DNA from: a virus
Direction: 5' to 3' (one strand)
Length of the DNA: 20,138 nucleotides
IMG/VR virus record: IMGVR_UViG_3300009160_000217
Coordinates: 1 to 20,138 of that record
Shown: one piece after another, positions 9,548-20,138 of the stretch
Layout of the letters: every line of letters begins with the position of its first letter
How positions within the stretch are numbered: position 1 is the first letter of the stretch
Position numbers and translations under genes: made by a program
The notes under the pieces: generated by a model
The model's input: the letters and a program-made list of their open reading frames with translations, nothing else
What the model was told of the DNA's origin: nothing
Database searches by the model: none

Positions 9548-12500
9548 TTATCTCCTAGCAAGTGCTGGTCTATTACCATAGGTATTAGACATGGACTGTT
9601 GTACTGGGCTGCCCTTAGTTGCAATTTGTTGTGCAACTACATCACCAACGATTACTTCAATTGTACGATTACCACGACTATCCATGGTTTCACGAGTTTC
9701 TGCTGGTTGACCGCTGTGATTATTAACCACAACATTAACATTACTAGGCTGTGAGCGTACTCCAAGATTACCTTCACCATCACGCTTTAGGGGCATAATG
9801 GCTTCGGGTCCTGCTTCGCCCATCATGCCTGTGCCTTGTGCAAATTTAAATAGTGTAGGACTATTTACTACACTGTTAGTAAATGCACCACCCATTGCAA
9901 ATCTGTGAACTGGATAACCTTGATCATAGGCCGCACCTTTAGCAGCCCTACTATAAACATTTGCACCATAACCAGAACTTGTAGAACTAGCTAAAGCTGA
10001 TGTAGCATCTGAATATCCTTGCATGCCAAATGTAAAAGGATTAAATCCTCCTATAAACGCTGCTGCTCCAGGCCTAAAGGCTTTATATGCTTCCATCATT
10101 TGCAGTTTTAATTCATACCTGATTAAATCGCTAAGCATGCTATCAATTAAGCCTTTAAAGTCAAGTTTTCCAGTTTTGGCAAATTCTGCAATTGCATCGC
10201 CCATTCTTGAAAAACCACTTTCAAATATATCAATATAAGCTTGCTGCCTAGTACTTAGTTCATAAGTTAAATTAATAGCTTCAACTCTGCCTTTATTAGT
10301 TAATTCAATGCCTTGGATTTGTGTGTGCCAGTAAGCTCTTGCAGCATTTTTTCTAGCGTCAAAATTATCTAAATCTTCTTTAGAGTATTCTTTTCCATCT
10401 TTACGCATTACCATTCTGCGAACGTCGTCGTCTCTTTCTATTTGTTTAAGCTCATCTGCCCTAGATTTTTCAGCATTAGCTAAATCTTTAATACCCTGCA
10501 AATTTGCTTCGCGTAATTTTAAAGATTTTTCTGCATTTTGTAATTCTTGTTCTGTATATAGGCCTCTTTTACTATTAATTTGTAGTAGTTGACTTTCTAT
10601 ACTAAGATTTTGTTGTAGTATTTCAACTTCTTGAATTTTATTTCTAAAATCCCGTTCTCTAATAGTAGAATCTTTAGCATAACTATTATCAATAATTTGT
10701 ACTGCTTGTTTAATAAAAAACAATTTTTGTTCTGCGGTTAAAAGTTTATTGATATAATCTAGTTCTGCTTGCGCTTCAACAGCTATCTCGTTTGCCATAC
10801 TTTCTGTAGACTTACCCCTAGATTCTTCTAATATTTGTTTAGCAATGTTATTTTTTCTTTGAGCACTTTCACGTCTATTTGTAACGTCTAACCGATTAAG
10901 CTCAGTTTCTAAAGCTTGTTGAGCCTCTAGTGTTCCTGTTGATAAATAACTAACGCCAGTTTGTCTAAATTTATTTAATTCTTGTTCTAAGGCATTTAAC
11001 TGCTGAGTTCTTGAAATCTGTTTTTGACGTTCTTTAGTAATATATTCATCTATTTTTAATCTATCCTCAAAAGTTTTAAGAAGAGTTTTATTTGCATTAG
11101 CTTCTTCAGCATTTTCTAATGCCTTTTTCTCTAGCCCTTGAAGCTCTAGTTGTTGTATTCTTAAAGTCCCTTCGTCAAAATTTTTGTTTGCTTGTTTACC
11201 TTTGTTTATTTGATCTTCAATTACTTGAGCTTTATCTGCATAGTCTTTTTTAATTGCTCCCTTAGTTTTTTCATAATCAAGTTCTTGTTGTAGATTTTTT
11301 AGTATATTTTGACTAATTGCAAATGTTGTAGTATTACTAAGGCCTAATTTTTCAGAAATTTGTAATAATTGATTTTCGTAGTTAATTTGTTCCTGACTAC
11401 TAGCTTGTATTAATTGATCTAATGCATACTGATTTTGTCTACTAAGAACAGTTTCTTTACTAGCATTTTCTATTTGTTTTTGACTTCTTTCAATAGCGGC
11501 ATTATTTTTTGTAGTATCTTGTGCAGTAACTAATTGTGATCGTTGTCTTTGTTTTTCAATTAAATTTCTTTCTAGCTCTTGTTTAATTGACGCAGCTAAC
11601 GGCTCTTTAAGTCGGTCTTGTATACCCGCAATGTCACTATCTATTTTAAATAGTTCCGTAGCTTGTTTTTTAGCTAAAACTTGTGCCTCTAATGTATTTT
11701 TTCTAAGTATTTGTTGTTCGCTAAGTATAGATACTGCTTTAATTTCAATATTAAATTGTTCTAAAGCAAGCTCTGCTCCACGCTCTTGTTCAGCTAGTCT
11801 ACCTGCTTGAAGAGCTCGAGATTCTTGTCCTTGTTGTACACGACCTAATGCTTGACGACTGCTTATTTGAGCATCAATACTACCAAGTTGTACTTGTGCT
11901 CCTCGGCTAGTACTTAGCGCAAGTAATGCTTCGCGTCTAGGACCCTCAAAAAACCCGCCTAAAGAAGCTTCCAGTGTTTTTTTATTTTCAGCACTGGAAT
12001 CAGCTAAAAACTTTTCTACTACATTAAACTGCTCATTAATTATTTTTGCCTCGGGACCGCTTACTATTTTTTGTTCGTCTGCAGTTAGTGGACGTTTTTC
12101 TTGTTGAGCACGTTGTAGAATAGTTTGCTTTTGACTTTCAGCTAAACTTTTTTCACCTATTATTCTACTTAATTGTGCTTGATTAACTAATTTTAAAGTA
12201 AGATCTAGTTGAGACTTTTGTAGATTTAAATCAGCAATATCTAATTTAGTAGTAGCTGCTGCAACTCCTGCCCCACTAACTCCAGCAAGCAAAGACTTTG
12301 CACCTGCAATTTCATTTCTTTGACGTTCAATATTGGCTCTTTGATTTAGCAAAGATAAAGCATTATTAATAGCACCACCAGTAACACGCTCTATATTTTC
12401 TTTTATGCCATTTAAAGCTCTGTCACTTATAGTTAGACTAAGTTCAAGATTTTGCAACCTACTTTTAGCTTCTTCAATACCTTGTACAGTTAATTGTCTT

Positions 12501-15076
12501 GTATAAGCACTTTGACCACCTTTTGCTAGTGAAGCTTCTAATTGTCCTTTATTTTTACGAACTGTGGCAATTTCGGAATTAAGTAACTCAACATCTTTAG
12601 TATATTGTTGCAAAGGTTTTACATATTCTTTTAATTGCTCAGTACTTACACCTAAAAGTTCAAAAGCTTTAGGATTATTTAGTATTTCTTGAAGTGCAAT
12701 TGCAGAAGTGGCAGGATCTTTGAATAAGTCAGTTAATTTTAAACTTGCGTCTAACATAGTATTACCAAATTCAGTAATTGGATCTTTGTTAGCTAGAGTA
12801 TTTACTAAGTTCTGACCAGCTTTATTTGCAGCATCTAAACTACTTTTAAAATCTTGCACTTTGTCATTTTGAGCAACAATTGTATTAACTACAGGCGCAA
12901 GTGTTGCTTGTGCTTGTTTAGCTAACTTATCAACTGTAAAAGTGCTTTCGCCTTGAAGACGTTTTTCTAAACCTGTTTCAGTAAGATTTCCTACTTGAAA
13001 TATCTTTTTTAACTTTTCCTTGAGTTCTTCTTTAGCAGGACCTTCAGGTATAAGTTTTATCTGAGCAATAATACCTTTGGATACGTTTTCACTAAAATCA
13101 GCTTTTACACCTAGGTTTCCAAAAGATACGAGTTCTTTTATTTTATCCCAAGCACCTTCTACAAGACTCATTTTTTGAATTGCTGCTGAGTATTTTTCTA
13201 CTAAATCGTTTGCCTGATCTCCAAGATCTCGTAAACTAGTGCTGCGAGCATTTAAAGCTATTGCAGAAATAGTATCCCCAAACTTTTTGCTTACACGTTC
13301 TGCGTTCTCAATAGTTGAAGTATATGTTTTAGAAGCGTCTTCTAAACTTGCTAGTTCTTTTTCAGCGCTGCTAAAAGCATTGTATAATAATGCAATAGCA
13401 CTAACTATTACTCCTACTATACCAAAAGCAGCACTTAATGCACTAGCAAATATACTTACACTAACAGCAGCGGCATAAAATGCACCAGTAACTTGAGTGC
13501 GAAACTTATCCCACTGATTCATATCACGGGTAGTATTTATACGTTTATTAAGCTGGTCTATAGCATATCCAAAACCACCAGCTTCAGTTTCGCTAGTAAC
13601 TTCGGATAAAATGCTTAATCTTTCAGATCTAGCACCTGCTTTTCTGCTAATTATTTCCCTGGCCTTGGCCTCAGCATCAAATTTATCTGCTTTTGCATAG
13701 GCAATATTTTCTGCATCGTTTCGTACCTTTTGAGCTTTAGTAACAGCATCTTCGGCTGTTTTTCTTTCCTGTAAAGCAGCAGTTCTGCGCTTTTCTATTT
13801 CTAGAGTTTTTTCTCCTGCTGTTTGATTGATCTTTTCTGCGTCTGCAATATATTTTCTATCAATATAATCTTGATCATGAGCAGCTTTTTGTTTGGCTAT
13901 TTTTGCCTTTTCTAAAATATCTTTGTCGCCGGCAGATAAGCTGGTAACTTTTGATTTTTGATAGTCTTCATCAATTTTATTAAACTTTAAAACAGACTGT
14001 GTATACTGACGCTCTGCATCCTGTAAATTTTTATTAAATTTAGGCAAATCATATTTTGCCTGAATTTTTTCAACAAACTTTTCACCAAAACTGGTATTGA
14101 TATCTTCAGCTTTTTCTTTGGCTACTTTAGCGGCTTGTTTTAAATTGTCCTGCCATTGTGTTAAAGCAGGAATTGCCATTGTAAGTAGTTTAGATGCTAA
14201 TCCAACTAATGCTAAAGTTAAAAGACCTGAGTTATTTGCCAATACACTAGCTAAAGGTCCAATAAATTTATTAATAAGCGATAAGCCTGCTTGAGTTAAA
14301 TTTATAATAGAAGCTTCTAGTTGTTTATAAGGATTAGCTGGAATATCTATATCTTTAAATTTATCATTAGCTTCTTTTAAAACAGCATTAGCAAATGCTT
14401 GTCGTCTTTGAAAATCTGTTAATGCAGTAACTGGTTTACCTATACTACGAGCATAATCTTCAGTGGCTTTTTCAATTTTTGTAAAAATGCCTAATTCGTC
14501 TAATAATTCAGGTTCTAGTTTAGTAATACCACGTGTTAATCTACTAACCGCATCTGTAGCATCAATACCAAGTGCTTGGGAAGCCTTTTTTGCAGCATCA
14601 CCAATTTGTAACATTTGTTTACTACTTAAACCAGCGCTAGTACCTTTTGCAACTGCAGACATTGCTTCACGCAGACTAATTGCGCCGTCTGTAGCTTTTA
14701 CAAAATTTTGAGAAAGAGCACCTAGAGCAACGCCGCTTGTTGCCCCTAGTTGATCTAAGCCTTTAATCATATTAGTTGTATCTAATGCATCTTTTAAGGC
14801 ATTAAAAGCACTTACAGCAGCATAAGTGTTTGCAGCAACAGTTGCATAAATACGAACTAAACCACCTAAACCTTGTTGTTCATTAGCAAAATCACGAGCA
14901 CTAGCTCCAGTTAAACCACTAGCTCCTCTAGCTCGACCATATTGCATAGAAGCAGCACTTAACTGCTGTGATTTTTGAAGTTCTTTGTTATAAGCTTTGC
15001 CTTCACTAATACGTTCACGCATACTGCCGCGAGTATCTTCAACGCTTAAATCAATTTTAACAGTTTGATTTGCCAT
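9548..15076 (-). CDS. Tail tape measure protein
   Basis: The largest gene here, 1842 residues. Tape measure proteins fill the tail tube and set its length. The N-terminal part has the family-like LTRGITKLEPELLDELGI motif near residue 185 and hydrophobic segments near 280-300. A second strongly hydrophobic segment (about 530-566) could insert into the host membrane. A long Gln/Glu/Lys-rich central region is predicted coiled coil. The C-terminus is lambda-gpH-like: DFKGLIDSMLSDLIRYELKL, then GMMGEAGPEAIMPLKRDGEG, the commonest tape-measure ending. At about 0.15 nm per residue it implies a tail near 270-280 nm; that is inference. The start has GGAG (15082-15085) six bases upstream and its own consensus promoter. 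Three bases separate its stop from the M-like gene. Confidence 0.95.
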   Translation of the reverse strand: MANQTVKIDLSVEDTRGSMRERISEGKAYNKELQKSQQLSAASMQYGRARGASGLTGASARDFANEQQGLGGLVRIYATVAANTYAAVSAFNALKDALDTTNMIKGLDQLGATSGVALGALSQNFVKATDGAISLREAMSAVAKGTSAGLSSKQMLQIGDAAKKASQALGIDATDAVSRLTRGITKLEPELLDELGIFTKIEKATEDYARSIGKPVTALTDFQRRQAFANAVLKEANDKFKDIDIPANPYKQLEASIINLTQAGLSLINKFIGPLASVLANNSGLLTLALVGLASKLLTMAIPALTQWQDNLKQAAKVAKEKAEDINTSFGEKFVEKIQAKYDLPKFNKNLQDAERQYTQSVLKFNKIDEDYQKSKVTSLSAGDKDILEKAKIAKQKAAHDQDYIDRKYIADAEKINQTAGEKTLEIEKRRTAALQERKTAEDAVTKAQKVRNDAENIAYAKADKFDAEAKAREIISRKAGARSERLSILSEVTSETEAGGFGYAIDQLNKRINTTRDMNQWDKFRTQVTGAFYAAAVSVSIFASALSAAFGIVGVIVSAIALLYNAFSSAEKELASLEDASKTYTSTIENAERVSKKFGDTISAIALNARSTSLRDLGDQANDLVEKYSAAIQKMSLVEGAWDKIKELVSFGNLGVKADFSENVSKGIIAQIKLIPEGPAKEELKEKLKKIFQVGNLTETGLEKRLQGESTFTVDKLAKQAQATLAPVVNTIVAQNDKVQDFKSSLDAANKAGQNLVNTLANKDPITEFGNTMLDASLKLTDLFKDPATSAIALQEILNNPKAFELLGVSTEQLKEYVKPLQQYTKDVELLNSEIATVRKNKGQLEASLAKGGQSAYTRQLTVQGIEEAKSRLQNLELSLTISDRALNGIKENIERVTGGAINNALSLLNQRANIERQRNEIAGAKSLLAGVSGAGVAAATTKLDIADLNLQKSQLDLTLKLVNQAQLSRIIGEKSLAESQKQTILQRAQQEKRPLTADEQKIVSGPEAKIINEQFNVVEKFLADSSAENKKTLEASLGGFFEGPRREALLALSTSRGAQVQLGSIDAQISSRQALGRVQQGQESRALQAGRLAEQERGAELALEQFNIEIKAVSILSEQQILRKNTLEAQVLAKKQATELFKIDSDIAGIQDRLKEPLAASIKQELERNLIEKQRQRSQLVTAQDTTKNNAAIERSQKQIENASKETVLSRQNQYALDQLIQASSQEQINYENQLLQISEKLGLSNTTTFAISQNILKNLQQELDYEKTKGAIKKDYADKAQVIEDQINKGKQANKNFDEGTLRIQQLELQGLEKKALENAEEANANKTLLKTFEDRLKIDEYITKERQKQISRTQQLNALEQELNKFRQTGVSYLSTGTLEAQQALETELNRLDVTNRRESAQRKNNIAKQILEESRGKSTESMANEIAVEAQAELDYINKLLTAEQKLFFIKQAVQIIDNSYAKDSTIRERDFRNKIQEVEILQQNLSIESQLLQINSKRGLYTEQELQNAEKSLKLREANLQGIKDLANAEKSRADELKQIERDDDVRRMVMRKDGKEYSKEDLDNFDARKNAARAYWHTQIQGIELTNKGRVEAINLTYELSTRQQAYIDIFESGFSRMGDAIAEFAKTGKLDFKGLIDSMLSDLIRYELKLQMMEAYKAFRPGAAAFIGGFNPFTFGMQGYSDATSALASSTSSGYGANVYSRAAKGAAYDQGYPVHRFAMGGAFTNSVVNSPTLFKFAQGTGMMGEAGPEAIMPLKRDGEGNLGVRSQPSNVNVVVNNHSGQPAETRETMDSRGNRTIEVIVGDVVAQQIATKGSPVQQSMSNTYGNRPALARR

Positions 15077-15081
15077 AGTAT

Positions 15082-15085
15082 CTCC
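15082..15085 (-). promoter_or_regulatory. Ribosome binding site of the tape measure gene
   Basis: The leader reads TTGGAGATACT directly before the ATG, placing GGAG five bases from the start codon. It confirms the start at 15076. Confidence 0.8.
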
Positions 15086-15093
15086 AAGTACTC

Positions 15094-15118
15094 TGCAGCA
15101 ACTATAATATTAGCTGCA
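15094..15118 (-). other. Hairpin in the tape measure leader
   Basis: Perfect six-base arms TGCAGC and GCTGCA enclose a 13-base loop rich in A and T. The hairpin lies between the predicted transcription start (about 15129) and the ribosome site, eight bases upstream of GGAG. It could stabilise the message or tune translation. There is no U-tract, so it is not a terminator. Confidence 0.5.
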
Positions 15119-15135
15119 TATTTTTACGTATACCA

Positions 15136-15164
15136 ATTATACCACATAGGCAAATAGGTGTCAA
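15136..15164 (-). promoter_or_regulatory. Perfect consensus sigma-70 promoter before the tape measure gene
   Basis: Read on the minus strand, TTGACA (15159-15164) is followed after exactly 17 bases by TATAAT (15136-15141), a full match to both consensus hexamers at the best spacing. An A/T-rich tract including AAAATTTTTT lies just upstream and may act as an UP element. Transcription should start near 15129, giving a leader of about 53 bases. The promoter lies in non-coding DNA directly after an intrinsic terminator, so it would restart transcription for the tape measure and tip genes. Confidence 0.9.
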
Positions 15165-15188
15165 TACAAAAAATTTTATAACAGCAAC

Positions 15189-15218
15189 AAAAAACCCGCG
15201 TATTAGGCGGGTTTTTTT
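15189..15218 (-). terminator. Bidirectional intrinsic terminator after the chaperone genes
   Basis: CCCGC and GCGGG arms (15195-15199 and 15207-15211) surround a seven-base loop. Six A residues on the left give a U6 tract for leftward RNA, and seven T residues on the right make it work in the other direction too. The TAA stop of the T-frame chaperone (15203-15205) sits inside the loop, so the hairpin overlaps the coding end. It should end or reduce transcription of the head-proximal tail genes before the tape measure. Confidence 0.9.
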
Positions 15219-15535
15219 GTTGTTTTAGAATTAACTTGTTCTTGTCTAACTTGATCAATTATACGCACAAGAATTAGTATATACTTATAGTCTGCTGGTT
15301 CAATTTCGCAAGCAAAAAATATTTCATGTATGCCAGCTAAAGATTTGCCTAGATACAAACCATTCATGCCTTCCCATTCATCTCGCAACATTCTATATAC
15401 AATAAAAGCTTGTTGCAGTTCTAGGGGAAAGTCATCAAAGTCAACTGGAATTTCTTCTTCTACAGGTTCTGATCCCAGCTGTTCGCACATTTCAAAATAA
15501 CTTTCCTTAGTCATACTAAGACTATTATTTTGCAT
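15203..15535 (-). CDS. Tail assembly chaperone, T-frame; mainly made as a G-T frameshift fusion
   Basis: The segment from the first ATG is 110 residues, but that ATG (15533-15535) has no ribosome site in front of it. The frame stays open upstream as far as the slip site at 15583-15589, adding 16 residues that start LFDWQLTEVNRLL. The full product, read 15975 to 15203 with a -1 shift, would be about 257 residues: 131 from the G frame, then 126 from the T frame. The T segment (MTKESYFEMCEQLG, then an acidic PVEEEIPVDFDDFP stretch) has the character of the T domain of lambda gpGT. That domain binds tube subunits while the G part coats the tape measure. Its C-terminus, TTKKPA, is encoded within the terminator hairpin. 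Confidence 0.85.
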   Translation of the reverse strand: MQNNSLSMTKESYFEMCEQLGSEPVEEEIPVDFDDFPLELQQAFIVYRMLRDEWEGMNGLYLGKSLAGIHEIFFACEIEPADYKYILILVRIIDQVRQEQVNSKTTKKPA

Positions 15536-17862: not shown

Positions 17863-18300
17863 TTACGAGACTTGATACCTTACTTGTAGATTGATTTCTC
17901 CAACCGCATAAGGCGCTAGTAATCCTTCATCAGTAGTAATTGACTGAACTAGGATCTCAGTTGTAGATTGGTTGTTTACCGAATTGTATACTATTGATCT
18001 ATTAGCATCAATACAAGTTTCTATATCAGTTAATAAGGATTCCAGTTGTTCGCTGCTGTATTCACCATGGCAATATACTTTAACAGCAATACCTAAATAA
18101 CCCCAAGCAAATCCTGCTGGATGATATTCACGGGTTTCTGTGCCAGGCATTAAGAAAACACTAGGAAAATCATCTACTTCATCCCAGAATTTTAGCTTAG
18201 CATACGCATTTTTAAAAATGTTGATCTTGTACGGGTCTTTGCCGTTAATCAGGGCTATCTTATCAGTAAGGGCTTTTACAATTTGTGTTCTTGCACTCAT
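17863..18300 (-). CDS. Tail terminator-like protein (tail completion)
   Basis: A 145-residue protein that lies directly before the tube gene, the usual place of the tail terminator (lambda gpU role). Such proteins cap the finished tube as a ring and prepare it to join the head. It starts MSARTQIVKALTDKIALING, a short helix of the kind common in this family; a central FPSVFLMPGTETREYHPAG and VKVYCHGEY follow, then a helix LESLLTDIETCIDANR. The final strand is SITTDEGLLAPYAVGEINLQVRYQV, where 'DEG…PYAVGEI…V.Y' resembles tail terminators of many siphophages and myophages. The start overlaps the upstream TGA (ATGA). Confidence 0.78.
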   Translation of the reverse strand: MSARTQIVKALTDKIALINGKDPYKINIFKNAYAKLKFWDEVDDFPSVFLMPGTETREYHPAGFAWGYLGIAVKVYCHGEYSSEQLESLLTDIETCIDANRSIVYNSVNNQSTTEILVQSITTDEGLLAPYAVGEINLQVRYQVS

Positions 18301-19763
18301 ATTAACACCGCCCTTAATCTATTTCGTACTTGGGTTTCAGCAATTTCCCTGATTGATTTGCTTATTAACAGTTTAGGGTTGCGAGTTTTTGGAGATTCTT
18401 GACGCCCACCTTCACTAAATGTGCCGTAGGGATTACGCATATAGTTATAAAATGCAGTAATCATACCTTCGCGGCTTTGGGTCATTCGTTCTACTTTTGC
18501 ACTTTCAGCAAATTTGCCGGTGCGTAGGTTTAAAATATCACGACGACTGCCAGTACCCATATTTTCTTTAATAGTTTTTGCTAATAGACTATTAATTAAT
18601 TGCTGTAAATTAACTAAACTATACGACTGGTTATCCCGTGTTTTTAATTGATTTCTAACTTTGGTTTTAGTTTTAGTAATATCCGACTTTGCTTTTTTTA
18701 AATCAGACTTGGCTTTTGCAATACTTGCTTTTGCCTGAGCAACTCCTGATACAGACTGCAACTTTAAATTAGTAGCTTCAATATTACCGGTGTATTCTTC
18801 GGCATATTTTTTACGATTACCAGTAATTGCGCTTACTAAAGAATCTTCTACTAGTTTAATAATAGGTGGCGAAGATTCTAGATTTACTAGGTTACTGTTT
18901 GATAAACCTTGGTCTATAAAACCTTTTATCATGCCTTGCATGGCTTTTTCAAGTAAGTTATTGCCACTTTGATAACCTACACTATTTAAAAAACCTCTTA
19001 TACCTGTATTACTGCTTTTACCAACTACAGTACCAACCCCACTACCAGCTTTTTGCTGTGACGTGGCTCCTTGCCACTGAATTAACCAACTACTATCAGT
19101 TTTTCTATATTGAGCAAAAATTGCTGCATTTAAATCTTGACCTAGACTACTAGCTGCTTGATCTAATTCTTCTAGTGCATCTAATAAGCTATCAATAAAC
19201 TTATTTAAACTATCAAGTTCTTTTTGTACTTGTTCTGGTTTAATAGGTTCATTCGTTTTAGGATCTCGCCTATCTGCTAAACTTAATGTTTTGCCAATAC
19301 TTTGTCGTGTTCTTTCTACTAAAGTATTAGCCCATCCATAAACATGGCCTTTATCAAAATCATAGTTTTCTATGTTTTGTGCAATACCTACAGATAAACC
19401 TGTTACACCACTGTATTGTTCTAATATTTCTGCTATTTTTGTATTTAGGGTATCAAATTTAAATTTTTTAAATATAATTGCCTGCGTACCGTTGGGAGGA
19501 CTAAATATTTCTACTAAATCTGTGCCACTAACAGCGATATCGGCTTTAATTAAATTAAAGATATTATTAGCTAGCTGTTTATTACCAACTACTTTTTCTA
19601 AGTCAGCTATAGGTAATATAAAATCAACTGTAGAACTTTTAATTTCTTGTTTGCTAGATCCGCGGGTTTGATGTAATACCGAACTAGTATCTTGGCGGCC
19701 TTCTGCCCAAGATTTAAGTTCTGGTATATTTTTCATTATCTCTCTAAAAGCTTTTGCGCTCAT
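18297..19763 (-). CDS. Hypothetical neck-region protein, possibly HK97 gp10-like at its C-terminus
   Basis: A 488-residue protein not recognised with confidence. It sits between the head-tail connector and the tail terminator, where siphophages keep head-closure and tail-completion (gp10-like) genes, but it is about three times longer than those. The N-terminal 330 residues are mixed helix with no clear motif. Residues about 330-370 are Lys/Ala-rich (AKASIAKAKSDLKKAKSDIT) and look like coiled coil. The last 85 residues contain DILNLRTGKFAESAKVERM and NPYGTFSEGGRQESP, then KLLISKSIREI. The 'RTGxxxxS…PYxxFxEGG' spacing recalls gp10-family proteins, so a neck protein with a long N-terminal extension is the best guess. 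Both ends overlap neighbours as ATGA. Confidence 0.6.
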   Translation of the reverse strand: MSAKAFREIMKNIPELKSWAEGRQDTSSVLHQTRGSSKQEIKSSTVDFILPIADLEKVVGNKQLANNIFNLIKADIAVSGTDLVEIFSPPNGTQAIIFKKFKFDTLNTKIAEILEQYSGVTGLSVGIAQNIENYDFDKGHVYGWANTLVERTRQSIGKTLSLADRRDPKTNEPIKPEQVQKELDSLNKFIDSLLDALEELDQAASSLGQDLNAAIFAQYRKTDSSWLIQWQGATSQQKAGSGVGTVVGKSSNTGIRGFLNSVGYQSGNNLLEKAMQGMIKGFIDQGLSNSNLVNLESSPPIIKLVEDSLVSAITGNRKKYAEEYTGNIEATNLKLQSVSGVAQAKASIAKAKSDLKKAKSDITKTKTKVRNQLKTRDNQSYSLVNLQQLINSLLAKTIKENMGTGSRRDILNLRTGKFAESAKVERMTQSREGMITAFYNYMRNPYGTFSEGGRQESPKTRNPKLLISKSIREIAETQVRNRLRAVLI

Positions 19764-20138
19764 GTGTAATCCGACCTGTACATATCTAACACACGTCGAA
19801 TATGTGCTGGTAAACCTGTAGTAGAAATATACTCAATCTGTACGCTATTAGTTCCGGGAGCTTTGGTGCTATGTACACTCATATCATTTTTACGATAGTA
19901 AGTTACCATGTCCATAATAGCTAGTGCAACGTCTGCAGGTACATCATCATATCCTGCGCGATAAGTTACCTTGTAACCTTTGATTACTTCAGGAAATCCA
20001 CGATTAACTGTAATTAGACTATTAACTGCATTAGTATTTAAGCTTTGTATTTCATTGCCATCTAAAATCCAGTCTTTGTACTGTACAAGATTAGTGTAGT
20101 TTTGACCAAAGTCTATGCTATAGCCAACACTAGCAACA
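19760..20138 (-). CDS. Partial head-tail connector protein (gp6/phiE125 gp8-like)
   Basis: The last 125 residues are visible; the start lies beyond the right edge. The stretch VTYRAGYDDVPADVALAIMD, continuing into MVTYYRKND, is typical of head-tail connector proteins of the HK97 gp6 / phiE125 gp8 group: a strand ending in YxAGYxxVPxDV followed by a long helix with a YY pair. These form a ring under the portal that joins head to neck. The protein ends IRRVLDMYRSDYT, and its TGA overlaps the next ATG as ATGA. Its presence shows that head genes lie to the right of the window. Confidence 0.82.
   Translation of the reverse strand, partial: VASVGYSIDFGQNYTNLVQYKDWILDGNEIQSLNTNAVNSLITVNRGFPEVIKGYKVTYRAGYDDVPADVALAIMDMVTYYRKNDMSVHSTKAPGTNSVQIEYISTTGLPAHIRRVLDMYRSDYT

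What the first reader, a model, noticed from the sequence alone, without database searches (positions are those of the whole stretch)
15077..15220. Terminator and perfect sigma-70 promoter back to back before the tape measure gene
In phage late regions the tail genes usually form one long transcript. Here an intrinsic terminator overlapping the T-frame stop is followed about 25 bases later by TTGACA-17-TATAAT with an A/T-rich upstream tract, then a leader hairpin. This would split tail genes into two transcription units and give the tape measure and tip genes host-RNA-polymerase-driven expression, independent of any phage late activator. A full consensus promoter is rare by chance and lies exactly in the one large non-coding gap. 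It may instead mark a junction where two modules were joined.
Basis: partly seen in the sequence, partly recalled or inferred. Interest (0 to 1): 0.65.

Follow-up and report, generated by a model that had tools for sequence, protein, structure and literature searches.

The report
Conserved full-consensus promoter before tape measure
A large uncultured group of T5-related phages keeps a transcription stop signal followed by a textbook-perfect bacterial promoter just before the gene for the tail-length protein, so the last tail genes are probably switched on separately by the host's own RNA polymerase.

Summary
In detail: minus strand, terminator at 15217-15189, then TTGACA-17-TATAAT with TGG before the -10 (15164-15136), 59 nt before the tape measure (TMP) start. 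It is not a local oddity. The window is a fragment of an uncultured T5-related phage. In IMG/VR relatives found by TMP protein alone, every gap that could be read carries the promoter (43/43 in one scan, 79/79 in a second; some contigs shared), nearly always 12/12 or 11/12 with a 17-nt spacer and TGn. Across 84 distinct versions -35, TG and -10 hardly vary; an A/T tract at about -48 to -40, a G/C pair at -22/-21 and a G at -5 are also kept. The terminator is kept in 31 of 32 distinct gaps tested. A collection-wide search for the DNA motif alone lands mostly before T5-like TMP or other structural genes of the group. Cultured T5 relatives differ: terminator without promoter before TMP, terminator plus promoter (T5 P-G25) after it. 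Best reading: a T5-type, host sigma70-dependent late promoter at a new position, starting a second tail transcription unit. The module-junction alternative is not supported; activator independence is untested. No RNA data exist. New variant of a known kind.

The parts
15203..15535 (-). tail assembly chaperone, T frame (frame open from 15604); last gene of the upstream tail unit; its stop codon lies in the terminator loop
   Evidence: PHROG 3914 tail assembly chaperone E 4e-13; frame layout; the equivalent frame in relatives matches T5.142
15189..15217 (-). intrinsic terminator: 11-pair stem, 7-nt loop, T run
   Evidence: z -4.66; kept with divergent stems in 31 of 32 distinct gaps of relatives
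15168..15177 (-). A4T6 tract, UP-element-like, about -48 to -39
   Evidence: 84 of 84 distinct promoters have A at the tenth base upstream of the -35 hexamer; AAAWTTT consensus
15159..15164 (-). -35 hexamer TTGACA
   Evidence: TTGA invariant, position 5 C 82/84, position 6 A 73/84 or T 11/84
15149..15151 (-). mid-spacer GCC at -22 to -20; G/C-G/C-pyrimidine in relatives; lies at the place of the Z element
   Evidence: 46 of 52 in the second, independently retrieved set have G/C at both -22 and -21, against 9% expected from the rest of the spacer
15142..15144 (-). extended -10 TGG
   Evidence: TG in 84 of 84 distinct promoters
15136..15141 (-). -10 hexamer TATAAT
   Evidence: at least 83 of 84 at every position
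15134..15134 (-). discriminator G at -5
   Evidence: G in 56 of 84 distinct promoters
15129..15129 (-). predicted transcription start (A)
   Evidence: inferred from spacing; A is commonest at this and the next position in relatives; no RNA data
15094..15118 (-). leader hairpin
   Evidence: fold -9.9 kcal/mol, z -0.95; variable in relatives; probably not essential
15082..15085 (-). ribosome-binding site GGAG
   Evidence: read directly from the sequence
9548..15076 (-). tape measure protein, first gene of the downstream unit
   Evidence: PHROG 3779 tape measure E 1e-42; about 30% identical to the tape measure/pore-forming tail tip protein of Demerecviridae

Best explanation
The gap is a terminator-promoter tandem of a T5-related lytic phage. 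The terminator ends (fully or partly) the transcript that carries the major tail protein and tail chaperone genes. A host sigma70 (housekeeping) RNA polymerase then binds a promoter in which nearly every known contact is at or near its optimum: UP-like A/T tract, TTGACA, 17-nt spacer, extended -10 TGn, TATAAT and G at -5. It starts a second transcription unit with the tape measure gene and the tail-tip and fibre genes behind it. Shown here: the sequence elements, their extreme conservation, and reuse of the same promoter type before other structural gene blocks. Inferred: that it is active, that the host sigma70 enzyme reads it, that it acts late as T5 P-J5 and P-G25 do, and that its job is to supply the very long downstream genes behind a terminator.
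For: Only 12/12 promoter in the window, expected 0.0008 by chance with TG. Loci fetched by TMP protein alone: 43/43 relatives with readable upstream DNA in the first scan and 79/79 in the second have it; in the second 68 are 12/12, 9 are 11/12 and 2 are 10/12 with an 18-nt spacer. 84 distinct versions share the elements while most spacer positions vary freely. Terminator kept in 31/32 distinct gaps with different stem sequences. Reverse test: a scan of the viral collection for the DNA motif alone gave 80 listed loci, 53 directly before a T5-like TMP; of the rest, several are contig ends with the same promoter type or a TMP start, and others lie before portal or capsid/protease genes. The same promoter type precedes portal and tail-fibre blocks in the relatives. 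T5 core genes are present in six ~100-kb relatives. No sigma70 r2/r4 domain found there. T5 precedent: late promoters P-J5 and P-G25 in the tail region, P-G25 behind a terminator, and all T5 gene classes are transcribed by host sigma70 RNA polymerase (PMC7472727).
Against: No expression data. The host is unknown; a Burkholderiaceae link rests on one accessory gene of relatives only. Full-consensus promoters can be limited by promoter escape, so strength is not certain (PMC10911233). T5 itself has no promoter at this place. T5.026, the T5 protein that modulates early/late promoter use, was not found by phmmer in the relatives.
Confidence: 0.85

Rival explanations
1. The gap is a recombination junction between two tail modules, and the promoter came along with one of them.
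For: Promoters and terminators often sit at module borders (general knowledge); flanking genes do vary between relatives.
Against: The same tandem occurs at the same place in all readable relatives. Against L004-L006, nucleotide identity grades from 86 (G) through 75-80 (T) to about 70% (TMP) with no break at the gap.
Confidence: 0.05
2. The site is read by RNA polymerase altered by a phage-encoded regulator that recognises the class-specific mid-spacer G/C pair at -22/-21 (an operator or activator contact), so it is not activator-independent.
For: The G/C pair is strongly kept in the late class (46/52) and in 14/14 hand-picked late promoters of other gene blocks, against 4/14 early-type ones. 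T5 late expression needs phage functions although its promoters are sigma70 type (PMC7472727; D5 note).
Against: The position coincides with the Z element contacted by the beta-prime subunit (-22 to -18, PMC10911233), so no extra protein is needed to explain it. The late/early lists were picked by hand and the sequences are related.
Confidence: 0.25
3. The conserved DNA serves mainly as something other than a promoter, for example a packaging, nick or recombination site.
For: T5 DNA does carry specific nick sites (annotated).
Against: The conserved positions are the RNA polymerase contact positions in the correct spacing, with start-site A and a ribosome-binding site downstream.
Confidence: 0.02
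4. The promoter is not late but active from the moment its DNA enters the cell.
For: Nothing in the sequence would keep a full-consensus sigma70 promoter silent; T5 delays such genes partly by two-step DNA entry (PMC7472727), which is unproven here. A1/A2 homologues, needed for second-step transfer in T5, were not found by phmmer.
Against: It lies in the structural gene block, and the early-type promoters of the same genomes tend to look different, as in T5, where early promoters carry ATATT in the discriminator (PMC7472727).
Confidence: 0.15

Closest known systems
Phage T5 late promoters P-G25 and P-J5
   Same: Host-sigma70 type -35/-10 with 17-nt spacer and upstream A/T tract, in the tail gene region on the late strand; P-G25 follows a terminator; both act late in vivo (PMC7472727).
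   Different: P-G25 lies after the tape measure gene and P-J5 inside the gene before the major tail protein; each matches 11/12, neither has TGn or the -22/-21 G/C pair with a -5 G together. Here the promoter lies before the tape measure gene and is 12/12 with TGn.
Terminator between tail chaperone and tape measure genes of cultured Demerecviridae
   Same: A terminator in the same gap, in T5, Eos, S124, STG2, KEY, Roth39, My1, phi 3 and Gary.
   Different: None of the gaps examined there contains a promoter scoring above 9/12.
Synthetic full-consensus sigma70 promoters
   Same: TTGACA-17-TATAAT plus UP-like tract, TGn and G at -5.
   Different: A 2025 paper states that no natural E-sigma70 promoter adopts the full consensus core (PMC12464699; it speaks of E. 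coli). Here it is kept across a large natural phage group; T5 itself also has one annotated TTGACA-17-TATAAT site at 53903, without TG.
Z element (RNA polymerase beta-prime contact, -22 to -18, loose consensus AACCT)
   Same: Conserved spacer bases at -22 to -20, pyrimidine/C-rich.
   Different: The consensus here is T-G/C-C-Y, about one base offset from AACCT; no functional test.

Membership tests
sigma70-dependent promoter | -35 TTGACA and -10 TATAAT with 16-18 nt spacer | tested here: met
   conserved in relatives
sigma70-dependent promoter | initiation by host sigma70 RNA polymerase | not testable with these tools
   no RNA or biochemical data; absence of sigma70 r2/r4 domains in six relatives fits. 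The T7-type RNA polymerase search had no working control and says nothing.
T5-type late promoter | lies in the structural gene region on the late strand of a T5-related phage | tested here: met
T5-type late promoter | preceded by a terminator, as P-G25 | tested here: met
T5-type late promoter | same genomic position as a known T5 late promoter | tested here: not met
   T5 and cultured relatives have only a terminator in this gap; 11 of 12 uncultured relatives tested have no promoter of 10/12 or better after TMP
T5-type late promoter | lacks the early-class ATATT discriminator | tested here: met
   TGGTATA follows the -10 in the window; early rule from PMC7472727
T5-type late promoter | active only late in infection | not testable with these tools
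   needs an isolate and a time course
Demerecviridae (T5 family) | T5 core replication, capsid and tail genes | tested here: met
   pol, D5, D6, D10-D15, terL, portal, capsid, pb6, pb2, both chaperones found in ~100-kb relatives (pb2 in four of six by phmmer); the window itself carries only tail genes
Demerecviridae (T5 family) | pre-early A1 and A2 genes | tested here: inconclusive
   no phmmer match in six relatives; records not shown to be complete; more sensitive searches not done
intrinsic terminator | GC-rich hairpin followed by T run, better than shuffles | tested here: met

The most novel reading that the evidence does not exclude
The late promoters of this phage group form a class marked by a G/C pair at -22/-21 inside an otherwise full-consensus sigma70 promoter, and this spacer signature is functionally read (by the beta-prime zipper as a Z element, or by a phage regulator) to tell late from early promoters of the same phage.
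Probability: 0.3. Interest if true: 0.7.

Novelty: new variant of a known kind. Interest (0 to 1): 0.5.

Why it matters
Textbook accounts hold that natural sigma70 promoters avoid the full consensus because expression is optimised rather than maximised (PMC12464699). Here a large natural phage group keeps the full consensus core together with UP-like tract, TGn and -5 G at one site under evident purifying selection. That makes it a natural test case for how a maximal promoter is timed and escaped, for the role of the spacer, and for the open question of how T5-type phages time late transcription with host RNA polymerase. It also gives a DNA signature that finds late units of uncultured T5-like phages.

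Tried and rejected
Rfam over the window and over six cultured-phage loci: no match. Leader hairpin as a functional part: not better than shuffles and not uniformly kept. Module junction: rejected. Phage sigma factor: sigma70 r2 and r4 not found; the T7-type polymerase search has no positive control and is uninformative. Host promoters of ten genomes reached through an accessory gene (mostly Burkholderiaceae and other betaproteobacteria): no near match to the TG-containing consensus, so host spacer habits could not be compared; the true host is unknown. No DNA-level match in the phage collection. Classic T5 promoter papers (Brunel 1983, Gentz and Bujard 1985) and the Z-element paper are not held, so their content is known only through citing papers.

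Full report
OBSERVATION. On the minus strand the order is T-frame chaperone (stop 15205-15203), terminator hairpin 15217-15189, A4T6 tract 15177-15168, TTGACA 15164-15159, 17-nt spacer, TATAAT 15141-15136, predicted start A 15129, GGAG 15085-15082 and ATG at 15076 of a 1842-aa tape measure protein. It is the only 12/12 promoter in the window; the next best reach 10/12. The total number of promoter-like sites (78) is no more than in shuffles (72.8, sd 8.3), so only this perfect site stands out. From composition, 0.015 12/12 sites with spacer 17 are expected in the window, 0.0008 with the TG. The terminator folds far better than shuffles (z -4.66), the leader hairpin does not (z -0.95).

WHAT THE PHAGE IS. 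The window is a 20-kb virus record with tail genes only: tail completion, tail terminator, major tail protein, two chaperone frames, tape measure and minor tail proteins. The nearest cultured relatives are T5-like phages (Demerecviridae), about 30-40% identical in TMP and major tail protein, with no DNA-level match. Six uncultured relatives of 92-102 kb carry T5 homologues of polymerase, helicases, primase, D5, D2, D10-D15, terminase, portal, capsid and tail proteins, but no phmmer match to A1, A2 or T5.026.

CONSERVATION. Relatives were fetched by TMP protein, not by promoter, so the test is not circular. First scan: 45 loci, of which 43 have readable upstream DNA; every one has TTGAC[A/T]-N14-TGN-TATAAT in the gap before TMP. 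Second scan with a 14-sequence alignment: at least 587 relatives exist in IMG/VR, 80 kept, 79 readable, all with the promoter (68 at 12/12, 9 at 11/12, 2 at 10/12 with an 18-nt spacer). Some contigs occur in both scans. The 84 distinct 17-nt-spacer versions give a logo in which TTGA, TG and the -10 are essentially invariant. A at the tenth base upstream of the -35 is 84/84 within an AAAWTTT tract. Spacer position 9 is C or G in 82/84 and position 8 in 78/84, -16 is a purine in 83/84, -5 is G in 56/84, and A prevails at +1/+2. Most other spacer positions are free. In the second set, taken as a test of the motif seen in the first, 46 of 52 have G/C at both -22 and -21 against 9% expected from the free spacer positions; the sequences are related, so the formal probability overstates the case. 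A terminator precedes the promoter in 31 of 32 distinct gaps, with different stem sequences.

REVERSE TEST. Of 80 listed loci, 53 have a T5-like TMP within 1600 nt downstream. Among the other 27, several are contig ends with the same promoter type or a TMP start, about ten lie before the portal block, one before a protease/capsid gene, and a handful before genes I could not place. The extended motif is therefore largely a signature of structural-gene promoters of this group. Within the long relatives the same type also precedes tail-fibre, HNH-portal and protease-capsid blocks, mostly behind a terminator in the tail-fibre case.

COMPARISON WITH T5. In T5 and eight other cultured relatives the chaperone/TMP gap has a terminator and no promoter above 9/12, and a terminator followed by a sigma70-type promoter lies after TMP in most of them (T5 P-G25 and equivalents). 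In 11 of 12 uncultured relatives examined no promoter of 10/12 or better follows TMP. So relative to T5 the terminator-promoter pair sits on the other side of the tape measure gene. T5 late promoters P-J5 and P-G25 are sigma70 promoters active late, all three T5 gene classes are transcribed by host sigma70 RNA polymerase, and how timing is achieved is unknown. T5 early promoters carry ATATT in the discriminator (PMC7472727); the window promoter does not.

MECHANISM. The conserved positions coincide with known RNA polymerase contacts: UP element (alpha C-terminal domains), -35 and -10 (sigma), TGn, the Z-element region -22 to -18 (beta-prime), and G at -5 (sigma region 1.2) (PMC10911233; PMC12464699). 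The simplest reading is a host-read promoter selected for maximal binding, placed directly after a terminator. It would uncouple the very long tape measure, tip and fibre genes from the transcript of the abundant tail-tube protein. Whether it is strong in vivo is open, because full-consensus promoters can be limited by escape (PMC10911233). No sigma70 r2 or r4 domain was found in six relatives. Timing, activator requirement and the role of the -22/-21 pair are inferred or unknown. Late promoters of other blocks have the pair in 14/14 and early-type ones in 4/14, but these lists were chosen by hand.

ALTERNATIVES. A module junction is unlikely: against L004-L006 nucleotide identity falls gradually (G 86%, T 75-80%, TMP about 70%) and the tandem is at the same place throughout the group.

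LIMITS. No RNA evidence, no known host, and fragments rather than complete genomes. The host hint (Burkholderiaceae) rests on one metallophosphoesterase gene of relatives whose five best genome matches are Burkholderiaceae-type MAGs at 55-57% identity.

VERDICT. It is a new variant of T5-type late promoters, remarkable for its exact and group-wide conservation.

Noticed in passing
window 15589-15583 (minus strand): The heptamer G-GGA-AAC lies in the reading frame of the first chaperone, inside its overlap with the T frame (open from 15604); this fits a lambda-like -1 programmed frameshift making a G-T chaperone (lambda's GGGAAAG recalled from memory).
   Followed up: partly
cultured Demerecviridae, e.g. 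L047:3540-3610, L048, L050, L182, L184, L185, L187; T5 record AY543070 about 96530-96620: The chaperone/TMP gap of cultured T5-like phages carries a conserved non-coding motif (TTTCCTCCAA-GGGCGTTCCACG-TGAGG) just before the terminator, not seen in the window's gap; no Rfam match. Possibly an attenuator or antiterminator RNA.
   Followed up: partly
G003 (L051) 18081-20075 and equivalents in five other relatives: T5 prohead protease and T5 capsid protein both match one and the same open frame in the uncultured relatives, suggesting a protease-capsid fusion.
   Followed up: no
G003 27553-31515 (L052), G004 1-1313 and 100136 (L056, L061), G013 30372-36571 (L068): Another promoter class with 18-nt spacers (TTGACA-CGTCCCAAAATTATATGT-TATAAT and similar), repeated several times near the dmp homologue, presumably the pre-early region.
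   Followed up: no
G003 26219 minus strand, G001 26951 minus strand, G002 5483 plus strand: A late-type promoter (TATACT -10) precedes a small membrane protein and a metallophosphoesterase gene whose closest bacterial relatives are Burkholderiaceae MAGs: a possible host clue.
   Followed up: partly
T5 genome position 53903, plus strand, before nrdD: T5 itself has one annotated promoter with TTGACA-17-TATAAT, at odds with the statement that no natural sigma70 promoter has the full consensus.
   Followed up: no
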